Part shown: in pieces, positions 3,969-9,563 of the stretch | How positions within the stretch are numbered: the stretch's first letter is position 1 | How the letters are laid out: every line of letters starts with the position of its first letter | NCBI GenBank assembly: GCA_020851015.1 | Contig: JADZDN010000421.1 | Location: forward strand, 1 to 10,528 | Direction: 5' to 3' | Source of the DNA: Alphaproteobacteria bacterium | GTDB lineage: Bacteria > Pseudomonadota > Alphaproteobacteria > JAEULC01 | Length of the DNA: 10,528 nt | Translations under genes and position numbers: made by a program | The notes under the pieces: generated by a model | Seen by the model: the letters and a program-made list of their open reading frames with translations, nothing else | Databases searched by the model: none | What the model was told of the DNA's origin: nothing

Positions 3969-4289
3969 ATGATTACCGAGATTGTGCTGTTCGACCTTCC
4001 CGCGGGCACCACGCGCGAAACCATGATCGCGCAGTTCCGCGAATCCATCCCGCGCTGGCGCGACAATCCCGACCTGCTGCGCAAGCACATGATCTTCGAC
4101 CTCGAGCGCCGCAAGGGCGGCGGGGTCTATCTGTGGCGCAGCGTCGCCGACGCGAAGCGCTGGCACGGCGAAGCGTTCCGCCAGCGCATCCTGGCCGCCT
4201 TCGGCAGCGAGCCCAGCTACCAGTATTTCGACACGCCGGTGGTGGTCGACAACGAGCGCCCGGACGTGTTCGTCGAAGCGGCCGACTAG
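3969..4289 (+). CDS. YdhR-like small monooxygenase / dimeric barrel protein
   Basis: A 106-residue cytoplasmic protein. ATG 3969 is preferred because GGAGG (3957-3961) sits 7 bases before it; the ATG at 3954 directly after the previous stop contains that ribosome site and would be a worse start. The pattern of strand-helix-strand (ITEIVLFDLP, then MIAQFRESIPRW, LLRKHMIFDLERR, GGVYLWRSVADAKRWH, and FRQRILAAFG) fits the YdhR/antibiotic-biosynthesis-monooxygenase dimeric alpha-beta barrel group. Members are small cofactor-free or poorly characterised oxygenases, so a real substrate cannot be given. It lies 15 bases after the HAD-UbiA gene and probably shares its transcript. Its stop TAG overlaps the ModE-like stop on the other strand. 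Confidence 0.72.
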   Translation: MITEIVLFDLPAGTTRETMIAQFRESIPRWRDNPDLLRKHMIFDLERRKGGGVYLWRSVADAKRWHGEAFRQRILAAFGSEPSYQYFDTPVVVDNERPDVFVEAAD

Positions 4290-4711
4290 CCGCCGGCGGC
4301 GGGGCGCGCGCCGCGCCGCGCGAGCCGGCGCGGCGGCCGCGGGCTTGGTTTCGCCGACCGGCCCGGCGCCTTGGCATCGGCGTTGGCCGCGCCGAGCGCC
4401 GCCATCTCCTGCGCCAGCGCGGCCTGCGCCAATTCCTCCATCCGCCGGAAGCGGTCGATCAGCGTTCCGCCGAAGCGGGTCAGCCGCGCGCCGCCGCCGT
4501 GCTCGCCGCCCTGGGCGGTTTCGACGACGCCCTGCGGAAAGGCCTGGTTCAGGCTGTCGACCAAGAGCCAGGCGCGGCGATAGGACATGCCCATGGCGCG
4601 GCCGGCGGCCGAAATCGACCCGGTCGCGCGGATCTGCTCCAGCAATTCGATCTTGCCGCGGCCAAGGCCGAAGCGGTGGGGGAATTCCAGGCGCAGGACC
4701 AAGCGGACCAT
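4286..4711 (-). CDS. ModE-like winged-helix regulator without TOBE domain
   Basis: A 141-residue DNA-binding protein. Residues about 8-95 match the LysR-type winged helix of ModE (COG2005): RFGLGRGKIELLEQIRATG, then ISAAGRAMGMSYRRAWLLVD as the helix-turn-helix, LNQAFPQGVVETAQGG and a GARLTRFG wing. Full-length ModE has a second half with two TOBE/molybdate-binding repeats; here that half is absent and replaced by a basic Pro/Arg/Ala tail from about residue 108. Such short forms are common in Proteobacteria and are often annotated as molybdenum-dependent regulators, but nothing here shows metal sensing. No molybdate transporter gene is adjacent. The ribosome site before ATG 4711 is weak. It is divergent from the LNPQPLPP gene (104-base gap) and convergent with the YdhR-like gene. 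Confidence 0.83.
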   Translation of the reverse strand: MVRLVLRLEFPHRFGLGRGKIELLEQIRATGSISAAGRAMGMSYRRAWLLVDSLNQAFPQGVVETAQGGEHGGGARLTRFGGTLIDRFRRMEELAQAALAQEMAALGAANADAKAPGRSAKPSPRPPRRLARRGARPAAGG

Positions 4712-4743: not shown

Positions 4744-4787
4744 GGTAAGCTGGTTCACAGCCCGCCCGGCCCGGTCGGGCTAGGGTT
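4744..4787 (+). promoter_or_regulatory. CRP-like site plus CTAGGGTT block, copy A
   Basis: GGTAA-GCTGGT-TCACA (4744-4759) matches the TGTGA-N6-TCACA dyad at 8 of 10 arm bases. Nineteen bases after TCACAG (4755-4760) lies CTAGGGTT (4780-4787). Taking TAGGGT as -10 gives a start near 4793, a 23-base leader to ATG 4816, and a dyad centre at -41.5. The same arrangement occurs on the minus strand at 5927-5970 and 6208-6251. Confidence 0.5.
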
Positions 4788-4815
4788 CCTCGTCGCCGCC
4801 CGCCAGGAGGTTCCC

Positions 4816-5037
4816 ATGAAGCTCGTTGTATCCAGCCTTCTCGCCGTCTGCTTCGCCATTGGCCTCGCCGGATCGGGCGAGGCCGCCACGACCGGCGTCC
4901 ACGCCAACGTCAATCGTGTCATGCTGAACCCGCAGCCGCTTCCGCCGGGCAGCAAGGTGATGCTGAACCCCCAACCCTTGCCCCCGGGCGGCCGGGCGAT
5001 GCTCAATCCGCAGCCTCTGCCGCCGCGTACGCGCTAG
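4816..5037 (+). CDS. Small exported protein with three LNPQPLPP repeats
   Basis: A 73-residue protein with an ideal AGGAGG (4805-4810) five bases before ATG 4816. Residues 1-23 are a Sec signal peptide (MKLVVSSLLAVCFAIGLAGS, cleavage near GEA-AT). After a short spacer, residues 36-73 consist of three 13-residue units, each beginning MLNPQPLPP and ending in a small basic linker (GSKV, GGRA, RTR). The gene therefore ends inside the third unit. I have the impression that the LNPQPLPP motif recurs in uncharacterised bacterial proteins, but I know no assigned function. The proline spacing suggests an extended, polyproline-like periplasmic or surface peptide. Expression is probably controlled by the CRP-like promoter at 4744-4787. 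A strong hairpin follows at 5058-5085. Confidence 0.83.
   Translation: MKLVVSSLLAVCFAIGLAGSGEAATTGVHANVNRVMLNPQPLPPGSKVMLNPQPLPPGGRAMLNPQPLPPRTR
4921..5037 (+). repeat. Three 39-base tandem coding repeats
   Basis: Units start at 4921, 4960 and 4999, exactly 39 bases apart, each opening with ATG and encoding LNPQPLPP. Over the eight LNPQPLPP codons the units differ at 5 (first versus second), 4 (first versus third) and 7 (second versus third) codons, and every difference is synonymous. The repeat is therefore old at DNA level and conserved as protein. Confidence 0.93.
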
Positions 5038-5057
5038 CCTCCGTCGTCGCGCCGGTG

Positions 5058-5085
5058 CCGCCGCGCCGGAAAACCGGTGCGGCGG
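5058..5085 (+). terminator. Strong GC hairpin after LNPQPLPP gene
   Basis: Two 12-base arms (5058-5069 and 5074-5085) pair completely in RNA with one G-U pair, closing an AAAA loop, 20 bases after the stop at 5037. No clear U-run follows (only CCTTCT further on), so it may be a terminator or a 3' stabiliser separating this gene from the next one. Confidence 0.55.
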
Positions 5086-5123
5086 GGGCTGCCGGGCCCC
5101 GGGCGTCCTTCTGCGCATGCAAG

Positions 5124-5152
5124 GTGGCAATCCCTCGCGGGTTGCCTATATC
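5124..5152 (+). promoter_or_regulatory. Candidate sigma-70 promoter for 20-residue repeat protein
   Basis: GTGGCA (5124-5129) and TATATC (5147-5152) are spaced by 17 bases, each matching consensus at 4 of 6. The predicted start near 5159 leaves a leader of about 27 bases to ATG 5186. Unlike the neighbouring small genes, no TGTGA-N6-TCACA or CTAGG block is present. Confidence 0.4.
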
Positions 5153-5185
5153 ATCGGCTGTGGCACGACGCGGAGAGTCTCCGTC

Positions 5186-5710
5186 ATGGCCCTGATGATG
5201 GCCTTCTTGGCCCTCCTTCTGCTGGGATTTTCGGCCCAGGCGCAGACGCCGCCCAAGGTGGCGCCGCCGCAATACGTCCAGCCGCCGCCGACGCCGCCGG
5301 TCGTGGGCTCGGCGCCGGGCGCGCGGCCCGATGTTCCCAGCGCCGGCACCTATACGCCCGGCAGCGTCGCCCGCGCGCTTGGCCAGCAGACCTACCAGGA
5401 CAGCAGCGGCGACGTGGTGACGACCCACCCGAACCTGTTGGGCGGCCAGACCTTCGTCGATCCCAACGGCAACACCGTGATCTCGCGGCCGACGATCCAG
5501 GGCGGCGAGGTGATGCGCGATTCGCAGGGCCGCATCATGACGTCGCGGCCGAACCTGACCGGCGGCTACACCTTCACCGGCGCGGACGGCAAGATCACGA
5601 TCTGCCGCCCCACGATCAACGGTCAGTACTACTGCCAGGACCAGGCCGACGCGCCGGGCCTGGCCAATCCGCGCGCGATCAGGGACAAGCTCGCCAAGCC
5701 GGCGAATTGA
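5186..5710 (+). CDS. Exported protein with four 20-residue repeats
   Basis: A 174-residue protein. ATG 5186 follows GGAGA (5172-5176) and opens a signal peptide (MALMMAFLALLLLGFSAQAQ, cleavage at about residue 20); the longer in-frame start at 5117 would put 23 polar residues before it. Residues 21-47 are a Pro-rich linker (PPQYVQPPPTPP). Residues 69-148 are four exact 20-residue units with the pattern aromatic at 2, Asp at 4, Gly at 7, Arg-Pro at 13-14 and Gly-Gly at 18-19 (first unit TYQDSSGDVVTTHPNLLGGQ). The fourth unit is degenerate and supplies Cys in ICRP, with another Cys just after it in YYCQ, a possible disulfide in the periplasm. The units look like beta-hairpin repeats. I do not recognise the family and assign no function. 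Its stop lies 6 bases from the convergent small gene. Confidence 0.82.
   Translation: MALMMAFLALLLLGFSAQAQTPPKVAPPQYVQPPPTPPVVGSAPGARPDVPSAGTYTPGSVARALGQQTYQDSSGDVVTTHPNLLGGQTFVDPNGNTVISRPTIQGGEVMRDSQGRIMTSRPNLTGGYTFTGADGKITICRPTINGQYYCQDQADAPGLANPRAIRDKLAKPAN
5390..5629 (+). repeat. Four 60-base in-frame coding repeats
   Basis: Units begin at 5390, 5450, 5510 and 5570 with no indel between them. At protein level Gly7, Pro14 and Gly18 are invariant and Arg13 is present in units 2-4. DNA identity between units is modest apart from a shared TCGCGGCCGA core in units 2 and 3, so this is an old duplication held by selection on the protein. Confidence 0.9.
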
Positions 5711-5716
5711 GCGGGG

Positions 5717-5887
5717 TCACCGCGCGCTGACGATCAGCGCGTGCAGCGTCGCATGCAGCGATTGGCCGCCGTCCTGAACCGCCTCCACCAGCCACAGCCC
5801 GGCGATCGCGGCCGACAGGCCGATCGCGGTGCAGCCCAGCGCGAAGGTGACGCTGAGCGCGAACAGCCTGACGAACGATCCGATCAT
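5717..5887 (-). CDS. Tiny single-span membrane protein, paralogue 1
   Basis: A 56-residue protein starting MIGSFVRLFALSVTF and ending LHALIVSAR. ATG 5887 has GAGGGT about 4 bases upstream on the minus strand. Residues about 9-34 form one long hydrophobic helix ending in AGLWLVEAV, after a basic Arg7, so the N-terminus is probably cytoplasmic and the polar tail periplasmic. Aligned without gaps to the next gene (5989-6162) it shares Met1, Arg7, Ala10, Val13, Phe15, Leu17, Cys19, Ala21, Ala27 and Gly-Leu-Trp 30-32, so the two are tandem paralogues. It has its own promoter motif (5927-5970) matching that of its sister. It is no match to a family I know. The paired conservation and ribosome site argue that it is real despite its size. 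Confidence 0.72.
   Translation of the reverse strand: MIGSFVRLFALSVTFALGCTAIGLSAAIAGLWLVEAVQDGGQSLHATLHALIVSAR
5723..5741. terminator. Hairpin between convergent genes, inside small ORF end
   Basis: CGCGCTGA-CGA-TCAGCGCG is a perfect 8-bp inverted repeat with a 3-base loop, extendable by a G-U and a C-G pair. It lies 13 bases after the plus-strand stop at 5710 and overlaps the last codons of the minus-strand small gene. It may end plus-strand transcription; there is no T-run. Confidence 0.35.
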
Positions 5888-5926
5888 GGTACCCTCGCTC
5901 TGCCCGGCAGGTGGCCGGATGGAGCG

Positions 5927-5970
5927 AAGCCTAGGCGCGCCGCCGCGCCGTCGCTGTGAGGCAGTTCACC
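5927..5970 (-). promoter_or_regulatory. CRP-like site plus CTAGGCTT block, copy B
   Basis: Read on the minus strand: GGTGA-ACTGCC-TCACA (5970-5955), matching TGTGA-N6-TCACA at 9 of 10 arm bases, then 19 bases after TCACAG comes CTAGGCTT (5934-5927). With TAGGCT as -10 the start is near 5921, leaving a 34-base leader to ATG 5887, and the dyad is centred at -41.5. Confidence 0.55.
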
Positions 5971-5988
5971 AAGGACGGCCGGCGCCGG

Positions 5989-6162
5989 TCACGGCGCGCT
6001 GGTGCCGACCTTCGGCGCCAGGGCCAGCAGCAGGGCGGGATCGTCGCCCAGCGCGATGCCGATACCCCACAAGCCGACCACGGCCAGCGCCACGCTGACG
6101 GCCGCGCACGCCAGGCCGAAAACGACATCCTGGGCCAGGAACCGGATCAACAAGGTCAGCAT
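5989..6162 (-). CDS. Tiny single-span membrane protein, paralogue 2
   Basis: A 57-residue protein beginning MLTLLIRFLAQDVVFGLACA and ending APKVGTSAP. The start ATG at 6162 has an excellent GGAGGAGGG about 8 bases upstream. One hydrophobic span (about residues 12-38) runs into GLWGIGIALGDDP, followed by a short hydrophobic stretch (ALLLALAP) and a polar end. It shares 12 of the first 44 positions without gaps with the 56-residue protein at 5717-5887, including Arg7, Cys19 and the GLW at 30-32. The product lies in the inner membrane; its role is unknown. The conserved Cys in the span could be a dimer contact or a lipid or metal ligand, which is speculation. It has its own CRP-like promoter at 6208-6251 and lies downstream of the YihY-like gene on the same strand. 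Confidence 0.78.
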   Translation of the reverse strand: MLTLLIRFLAQDVVFGLACAAVSVALAVVGLWGIGIALGDDPALLLALAPKVGTSAP

Positions 6163-6207
6163 GGCAAAACCCTCCTCCGCCGATTGCGGGAAGCGTCGAG
6201 CGGAGGC

Positions 6208-6251
6208 AAGCCTAGGCTGGCTTTCGGGGCCGGCCAGTGACGCAGGTCACA
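6208..6251 (-). promoter_or_regulatory. CRP-like site plus CTAGGCTT block, copy C
   Basis: Read on the minus strand: TGTGA-CCTGCG-TCACT (6251-6236), 9 of 10 arm bases of the CRP-type dyad, then 19 bases after TCACTG comes CTAGGCTT (6215-6208). With TAGGCT as -10 the start is near 6202 with a 40-base leader to ATG 6162 and a dyad centre at -41.5. The upstream arm overlaps the stop codon of the YihY-like gene. Confidence 0.58.
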
Positions 6252-9429: not shown

Positions 9430-9555
9430 GGCCCTCACCCGCCCTCCGCTTCGCTCCGGGCACCCTCTCCCGCTAGCGCGGGCGAGGGGCGTTGGAGACC
9501 CTCTCCCGACCTTGGGCGGGAGAGGGTGGTGAGCGCAGCGAACCGGGTGAGGGCC
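9430..9555. repeat. REP-like palindromic element of 126 bases inside ABC operon
   Basis: Outer arms GGCCCTCACCC (9430-9440) and GGGTGAGGGCC (9545-9555) are perfect complements. Between them lie two hairpins: 9463-9473 with 9478-9488 (11-base arms, one mismatch, loop TAGC) and 9498-9508 with 9517-9527 (perfect 11-base arms ACCCTCTCCCG, 8-base loop). The whole reads as two inverted copies of a half-element running CCCTCACCC, a GCTTCGCT-like block, then ACCCTCTCCCG. I recognise CCCTCACCC...CCTCTCCCG palindromes as frequent intergenic repeats in proteobacterial genomes. Its place between binding protein and permease genes resembles the REP sequences in the malE-malF gap, where they help unequal expression. 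Confidence 0.88.
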
Positions 9556-9563
9556 TCAGCGCT

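What the first reader, a model, noticed from the sequence alone, without database searches (positions are those of the whole stretch)
4744..6251. Three small-envelope-protein genes share a CRP-like dyad at exactly -41.5 of a CTAGGSTT block
Seen: TCACAG-N19-CTAGGGTT (4755-4787, plus), TCACAG-N19-CTAGGCTT (5959-5927, minus) and TCACTG-N19-CTAGGCTT (6240-6208, minus), each 28-45 bases before a well-supported start codon. The TCAC arm is the half of a TGTGA-N6-TCACA-type dyad matching at 8, 9 and 9 of 10 arm bases. Treating TAGGST as -10, all three dyads are centred at -41.5, the class II activation position known for CRP/FNR proteins. The 19-base spacers are unrelated in sequence, so this is not just a recent promoter duplication. 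CTAG is often a rare tetramer in bacteria. Inference: a local CRP-family regulon controlling the LNPQPLPP gene and two tiny membrane proteins, with weak -10s that need the activator.
Basis: partly seen in the sequence, partly recalled or inferred. Interest (0 to 1): 0.76.

Follow-up and report, generated by a model that had tools for sequence, protein, structure and literature searches.

The report
CRP-type promoters of envelope protein genes
The three matching DNA blocks look like on-switches of the kind used by the classic cyclic-nucleotide regulator CRP, and the same switch stands before many uncharacterised membrane and secreted protein genes, over half of them small, in a little-known group of bacteria.

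Summary
All three sites are as described; shuffled windows give 0.001 on average. GTGA-N6-TCAC-N21-CTAGNNT is a fixed-geometry unit: in the four held genomes of the nearest relatives' order, a scan over 31 spacings gave 16 hits, 14 at exactly N21. A one-mismatch form finds 30 sites there and no reversed control. By an automated rule, 23 of 30 precede an ORF with a hydrophobic N-terminus, against 16 of 213 CTAGNNT without a dyad; 14 of those 23 ORFs have at most 130 residues. So the regulon is order-wide, not local. Outside this order N21 is still the peak (40 of 125 rows). Each of the four genomes has a CRP-family protein with an RE-xxx-R helix; two such genes have tandem GTGA dyads upstream, and the full unit precedes the locus of a third. 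Best reading: class II promoters switched on by a CRP-type, probably cAMP/cGMP-dependent activator. Start sites, ligand and the acting paralog are untested, and the window's own genome is not held. New member of a known kind.

The parts
4745..4758 (+). Site 1 dyad GTAAGCTGGTTCAC (arms 7 of 8 to GTGA/TCAC), centre -41.5 to predicted start 4793; it lies between divergent genes (ModE-like ORF starts at 4711 on the minus strand)
4780..4787 (+). Site 1 -10 block CTAGGGTT
   Evidence: 8/8 in SJ314, 6/8 in MAG-111
4816..5037 (+). Gene 1: 73-aa protein with hydrophobic N-terminus and three MLNPQPLPP repeats
   Evidence: 227 relatives at E<=1e-3, 120 listed, none of those with a Pfam domain
5956..5969 (-). 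Site 2 dyad GTGAACTGCCTCAC
5927..5934 (-). Site 2 -10 block CTAGGCTT
5717..5887 (-). Gene 2: 56-aa protein with one hydrophobic segment, GLW family
6237..6250 (-). Site 3 dyad GTGACCTGCGTCAC; its left arm contains the stop codon of the brkB-like gene
6208..6215 (-). Site 3 -10 block CTAGGCTT
5989..6162 (-). Gene 3: 57-aa protein with one hydrophobic segment, paralog of gene 2
5186..5710 (+). Downstream 174-aa probably secreted protein; in MAG-111 (L002) the site-1 unit stands before its relative and gene 1 is not seen, so it may share site 1

Best explanation
The three blocks are class II promoters of a CRP-type regulon. A dimer of a CRP-family activator binds TGTGA-N6-TCACWG centred at -41.5, covering the place of the -35 element, and recruits RNA polymerase to a weak -10 (mostly CTAGNNT). 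The genes switched on are mainly membrane and secreted proteins of unknown function, over half of them small, scattered over the chromosome and sharing this promoter across an uncultured alphaproteobacterial order. Shown here: the fixed geometry, its enrichment, its place before such ORFs, its conservation, and the presence of fitting regulators and many nucleotide cyclase matches in relatives. Inferred: activation rather than repression, cAMP or cGMP as ligand, and which regulator paralog acts.
For: Spacing: 14 of 16 hits at N21 over 31 spacings in G001-G004, reversed control 0 (p 1.5e-19, and 11 of 13, p 2.9e-15, after removing one of each of three sets taken as orthologs). 30 one-mismatch sites, 0 reversed controls. 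23 of 30 before a hydrophobic-N-terminus ORF versus 16 of 213 (Fisher p 5e-16). Base 16, not fixed by the pattern, is C in 26 of 30. Related target proteins share the unit in different genomes: L145/L296 62% identical, L148/L160 67%, L153/L285 67%. The GLW profile finds six clear genes in G001-G003 and all six have the dyad at the right place; five of them had been found through the promoter or synteny, the sixth (L318) by protein search alone, with a non-CTAG -10. Blocks kept while spacers drift. Regulators: RETVAR or RETVTR helix in each of the four genomes; tandem GTGA dyads 22-23 bp apart before G002:C399 and G001:C164; the full unit before the G001:C125 locus. 17-22 class III cyclase matches per genome.
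Against: No transcription start is mapped; -41.5 is inferred from the TANNNT block. The window's genome is not held. A second regulator clade (RESINK helix) could bind the same dyad. 7 of the 30 sites fail the gene rule. Of 30 strand readings of GTGAN6TCACWG in the 2.1-Mb sample, 21 have no TANNNT at the class II place; three of these are the reverse reading of counted sites and three are near misses listed, the rest may have other roles. The best conserved regulator (G001:C9, G003:C22) has no dyad with at most one mismatch in the stretch scanned upstream; G004:C124 has one with one mismatch at -189. The cyclic-nucleotide pocket of G004:C124 reads AEL instead of GEL. Class-wide, with all spacings 14-28 pooled, reversed controls are nearly as many as hits (about 114, my tally, against 140); only the N21 peak speaks for the unit there. 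At site 3 part of the left arm is a stop codon.
Confidence: 0.82

Rival explanations
1. The regulator is the RESINK-helix CRP protein (G001:C89, G002:C308, G003:C78, G004:C39) rather than the RETVAR/RETVTR clade; mechanism otherwise the same.
For: One such protein seen in each of the four genomes; a class III cyclase match lies about 1.3 kb from it in three of them (C89:2615, C308:4211, C39:25911; G003:C78 ends 0.3 kb after the match). A solved chain (4byy) has the similar helix RETVNK; that 4byy is GlxR and that GlxR binds TGTGA-N6-TCACA is recalled.
Against: Only dyads with two mismatches were found near the beginning of their open frames; but in two of the four (L170, L172) the open frame begins far upstream of the likely start, so this is not a full test. 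Two RETVTR genes have tandem dyads and the C125 locus has the full unit.
Confidence: 0.25
2. A redox or nitric-oxide sensing member of the family uses the dyad, so the signal is not a cyclic nucleotide.
For: GTGANNNNNNTCAC is printed in a paper on nitrogen-oxide regulators such as HcpR, DNR and NnrR (PMC1274295, search listing and start of abstract only).
Against: Of the six RE-xxx-R candidates in G001-G004, five carry a GEL...PRSA pocket as in cAMP receptors and one reads AEL. FixK/FNR-like paralogs have (V/T/I)ETVSR helices, expected from recall to read TTGAT.
Confidence: 0.12
3. An alternative sigma factor reads TCACWG and CTAGNNT as its two boxes; no activator is involved.
For: Fixed spacing and a strongly kept downstream half plus GC are compatible with a two-box promoter.
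Against: The upstream arm GTGA is kept too, 8/8 arms between window and SJ314 and 7-8/8 to MAG-111; the same dyads occur in tandem without a -10 at the class II place; 20 bases between TCACWG and TA is long for sigma boxes (recalled).
Confidence: 0.06
4. The three sites are copies of one duplicated promoter, or chance matches.
For: Genes 2 and 3 are paralogs.
Against: Shuffles 0.001; spacers 7-8 of 19 identical between sites; different genes in four genomes carry the unit.
Confidence: 0.01

Closest known systems
Class II CRP (CAP)-dependent promoters of E. coli
   Same: Dyad TGTGA-N6-TCACA centred at -41.5, weak or no -35, regulator with cNMP domain and RE-xxx-R helix (promoter and E. coli facts recalled; helices here).
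   Different: Targets here are mostly membrane or secreted proteins of unknown function; the downstream arm reads TCACWGC; the -10 is mostly CTAGNNT.
CgrA regulon of Rhodospirillum centenum (PMC4681086; start of abstract and passages seen)
   Same: Alphaproteobacterium; a footprinted TGTGA-N6-TCACA site, said there to be identical to the CRP consensus, upstream of its own operon; several hypothetical proteins among its targets.
   Different: CgrA acts with cGMP in cyst development and has sigma factors among its direct targets; ligand and development are unknown here; the gcyB-gcyC-cgrA linkage was not looked for.
Sinorhizobium meliloti Clr
   Same: Chain 7pza is the best bacterial solved relative of G001:C9 (E 5e-19; that 7pza is Clr is recalled). 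Clr is a cAMP and cGMP receptor (PMC10127613, title in search listing).
   Different: The aligned helix reads GASRPKVNR, without RE; its DNA box differs (recalled).
FixK/FNR-type class II promoters
   Same: Class II placement in Alphaproteobacteria (recalled).
   Different: Arms here are GTGA/TCAC, not TTGAT/ATCAA; FixK-like paralogs are separate proteins in these genomes.

Membership tests
CRP class II promoter | TGTGA-N6-TCACA dyad | tested here: met
   8, 9, 9 of 10 arm bases
CRP class II promoter | Fixed position relative to the -10, centre -41.5 | tested here: met
   14 of 16 at N21; 9 of 30 readings with TANNNT at offset 36 against a mean of 0.09 per other offset, in a sample partly chosen for hits
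CRP class II promoter | No good -35 hexamer | tested here: met
   With a 17-base spacer the -35 place reads CWGCSN in the table (ACWGCS with 18), read by eye against TTGACA
CRP class II promoter | Mapped start and activator dependence | not testable with these tools
   needs 5'-end sequencing and a deletion
CRP-subfamily regulator | cNMP-binding domain plus HTH_Crp_2 | tested here: met
   PF00027 and PF13545 over cut-off in G001:C9 and G001:C125; not run on the others; window's own genome not held
CRP-subfamily regulator | RE-xxx-R recognition helix | tested here: met
   RETVAR, RETVTR, REAVAR in G001-G004
CRP-subfamily regulator | cAMP or cGMP dependence | not testable with these tools
   pocket GEL...PRSA in five of six, AEL in G004:C124; 17-22 class III cyclase matches per genome
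CgrA orthology | Linked gcyB-gcyC-cgrA operon and cGMP response | not tested
   R. centenum genome not fetched; a cyclase match about 4 kb from the G001:C125 regulator was seen
FNR/FixK box | TTGAT-N4-ATCAA | tested here: not met
   arms read GTGA/TCAC

The most novel reading that the evidence does not exclude
A regulon spread over an uncultured alphaproteobacterial order rich in nucleotide cyclases, in which a cyclic-nucleotide activator is devoted mainly to orphan membrane and secreted proteins, many of them tiny: a signal-triggered rebuilding of the cell envelope, possibly a dormancy or cyst coat as with CgrA, rather than carbon catabolism.
Probability: 0.2. Interest if true: 0.7.

Novelty: new member of a known kind. 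Interest (0 to 1): 0.5.

Why it matters
A promoter signature that can be read from raw sequence joins many unannotated envelope proteins, over half under 130 residues, into one regulon, which gives a first handle on when they are made. It points to which CRP paralogs may act in bacteria known here only from metagenome assemblies, and it shows that class II geometry with a CTAG-type -10 recurs in Alphaproteobacteria.

Tried and rejected
Chance and simple promoter duplication (rejected). Alternative sigma factor (disfavoured, see rivals). FNR/FixK box (arms do not fit). 'Local regulon' (rejected: order-wide). Strict CTAG -10 (relaxed: L318). Pfam: of 12 relatives' targets searched in the right frame, 11 have no family over its cut-off and one (L291) has PF07596, DUF1559; the two DNA references (L145, L160) were out of frame and were repeated by letters. 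The window's three genes have none. Literature: no held paper for LNPQPLPP; none by the terms; one search gave one paper, of which two passages were seen, a remark on AR1 and the reference list; two searches gave listings only. MAFFT misaligned the L002 site-1 spacer; the register was fixed by the pattern hit. A kinship of L162/L295 with L147 is weak (E 0.002, glycine-rich) and with L299 only by eye.

Results against the reading: 7 of 30 sites fail the gene rule (no ORF by the rule at L153 and L156; low hydropathy at L287, L289, L290, L292, L293; L289 is the frame-shifted gene-1 relative, L153 has a membrane ORF outside the rule). 21 of 30 WG dyad readings lack a class II -10. Pooled over spacings, the class-wide reversed control is nearly as frequent as the pattern. 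Regulator homologs occur in 11 of 49 relatives without a unit hit as well as in 9 of 10 with one. Ten of the 41 PF13545 matches were not read.
Full report
What is in the window. With up to one mismatch, GTGAN6TCAC-N21-CTAGNNT occurs three times; 1000 dinucleotide shuffles average 0.001. The genes behind them are a 73-aa protein with MLNPQPLPP repeats (4816-5037, plus) and two paralogous 56- and 57-aa proteins with one hydrophobic segment (5887-5717 and 6162-5989, minus). None of the three has a Pfam (E up to 1) or NCBIfam (E up to 0.01) match.

Relatives. No genome is held for the window. The one genome-contig scan (80 loci kept) gave two near neighbours: L001, MAG 'Alphaproteobacteria bacterium isolate SJ314' (query protein 94% identical; genome G001), and L002, MAG 'Rhodospirillales bacterium isolate new MAG-111' (72%; G002). 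The search tool holds four genomes for the order of G001, namely G001-G004. Near 4290 the SJ314 copy of the region passes to another contig, C62.

Footprint. In SJ314 all three sites are present: arms 8/8 each, -10 block 8/8, 8/8, 7/8, spacers 14, 17 and 10 of 19. TCACNG-N19-CTAGGSTT without mismatch occurs twice in the SJ314 assembly, at the orthologs of sites 1 and 2. In MAG-111 sites 1 and 3 persist (arms 7/8 and 8/8, -10 block 6/8 each, spacer 9/19 each), although no MLNPQPLPP gene is seen and the site-1 unit now stands before the relative of the 5186 gene. At site 3 the left arm overlaps the brkB-like stop codon in the window and SJ314; blastn shows no match to that gene in L002, yet the arm is kept there.

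Genome-wide geometry. GTGAN6TCAC-N21-CTAGNNT hits 10 of 59 relatives (20 sites; reversed control 1): G001 5, G002 5, G003 3, G004 1, six others 1 each. Letting the spacing run from 6 to 36 in G001-G004 gives 16 hits, 14 at N21, one at N22, one at N29, and no reversed control (p 1.5e-19). In 385 genomes of the class with spacing 14-28 there are 140 rows, 125 outside G001-G004; of these 40 are at N21 and 13 at N22, against 3-10 at each other spacing (p 2.5e-17 for N21; two rows of G325 share one dyad). Pooled over spacings the reversed control there is nearly as frequent (about 114 by my tally of the table), so the evidence is the peak, not the total. The geometry thus recurs in the class and is densest in this order.

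Targets. The one-mismatch form with TCACWG finds 30 sites in G001-G004 (9, 10, 8, 3) and no reversed control. An automated rule (best ATG/GTG 10-85 bases downstream, at least 28 codons) gives an ORF with a 17-residue window of mean hydropathy 1.8 or more in its first 60 residues for 23 of 30, against 16 of 213 CTAGNNT without a dyad and 5.3% of 7200 random places in 60 G001 stretches (Fisher 5e-16). The 23 ORFs run from 31 to 338 residues; 11 have at most 80 and 14 at most 130. Related targets share the unit across genomes: L145/L296 (62% identity), L148/L160 (67%), L153/L285 (67%), L162/L295 within G001 (87%), and the GLW proteins. Of 12 relatives' targets put to Pfam in the right frame, 11 have no family over its cut-off and L291 has DUF1559. 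The GLW profile finds 26 proteins of 56-75 aa including the window's two, and six clear genes in G001-G003 plus three weak hits elsewhere (E near 0.004, not followed). All six have the dyad at the right place; five had been found through promoter or synteny, so only L318, with TTAATCT as -10, is an independent case.

Unfixed -10. In 2.1 Mb of G001 and G003 stretches, 30 strand readings of GTGAN6TCACWG show TANNNT at offset 36 nine times and at other offsets 0.09 times on average; the stretches were partly chosen for hits, so the nine are inflated. Dyads number 38 and 27 against 11.8 and 5.7 expected from base composition.

Regulator. Of 41 PF13545 matches in G001-G004 the helices of 31 were read. 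The CRP-like ones include ETVSR, PESLSR, RESINK and RE-xxx-R groups; several weak matches look like other families. RE-xxx-R proteins are in all four genomes: RETVAR in G001:C9, G003:C22 and G004:C124, RETVTR in G002:C399 and G001:C164, REAVAR in G001:C125. Pfam confirms PF00027 and PF13545 in the two put to it, C9 and C125. The pocket reads GEL...PRSA in five and AEL in G004:C124. Dyads 22-23 bp apart lie upstream of C399 (one perfect, one with one mismatch) and C164 (one perfect, one with one, one with two), each with a divergent ORF beyond; the complete unit precedes the C125 locus, a 31-aa ORF followed by the regulator. C9 and C22 show no such dyad. The RESINK group is a live rival: one per genome, with a cyclase match about 1.3 kb away in three. 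PF00211 matches number 17, 22, 22 and 20 per genome.

Mechanism. Shown: dyad, fixed spacing, place before ORFs, conservation, fitting regulators in relatives. Inferred: a CRP-type dimer at -41.5 contacts RNA polymerase and makes up for a missing -35; ligand cAMP or cGMP. With a 17-base spacer the -35 place reads CWGCSN, unlike TTGACA.

Known background. The dyad is the CRP consensus. CgrA of R. centenum, an alphaproteobacterium, binds a TGTGA-N6-TCACA site upstream of its own operon (PMC4681086, passages). I found no held paper on this regulon with the searches; that says nothing about papers not held. I file the finding as a new member of the class II CRP promoter kind, with an unusual target set.

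Noticed in passing
L111 (G001:C62), ortholog of window 4816-5037: The SJ314 copy of the MLNPQPLPP gene is out of frame near its start, or the assembly has an error there; an intact copy is in the window.
   Followed up: partly
L002 3432-6021: MAG-111 has a solute-binding protein, an ABC permease and an ABC ATPase with a TOBE domain, probably a molybdate transporter, beside the ModE-like gene; in the window that gene (4286-4711; ModE-like, below cut-off) stands without them.
   Followed up: partly
G001-G004: 17, 22, 22 and 20 class III nucleotide cyclase matches per genome in assemblies of 3.5-5.9 Mb.
   Followed up: no
L354 (G003:C48), minus strand, script offsets 10163 and 10186: Two GTGA dyads 23 bp apart without a TANNNT at the class II place, like the arrays upstream of the regulators; maybe repression or cooperative binding.
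   Followed up: no
L196 (G001:C9) 12102: A perfect GTGATGGCCATCACTGC dyad begins about 15 bases after the stop codon of the C9 regulator gene.
   Followed up: no
window 9432-9562: Inverted-repeat-like element (CCCTCACCC...GGGTGAGGG) between two transporter genes, also aligning in reverse to its SJ314 counterpart.
   Followed up: no
G037, G165, G262: An identical GTGAN6TCAC-N28-CTAGNNT stretch in three genomes, probably one shared conserved locus.
   Followed up: no
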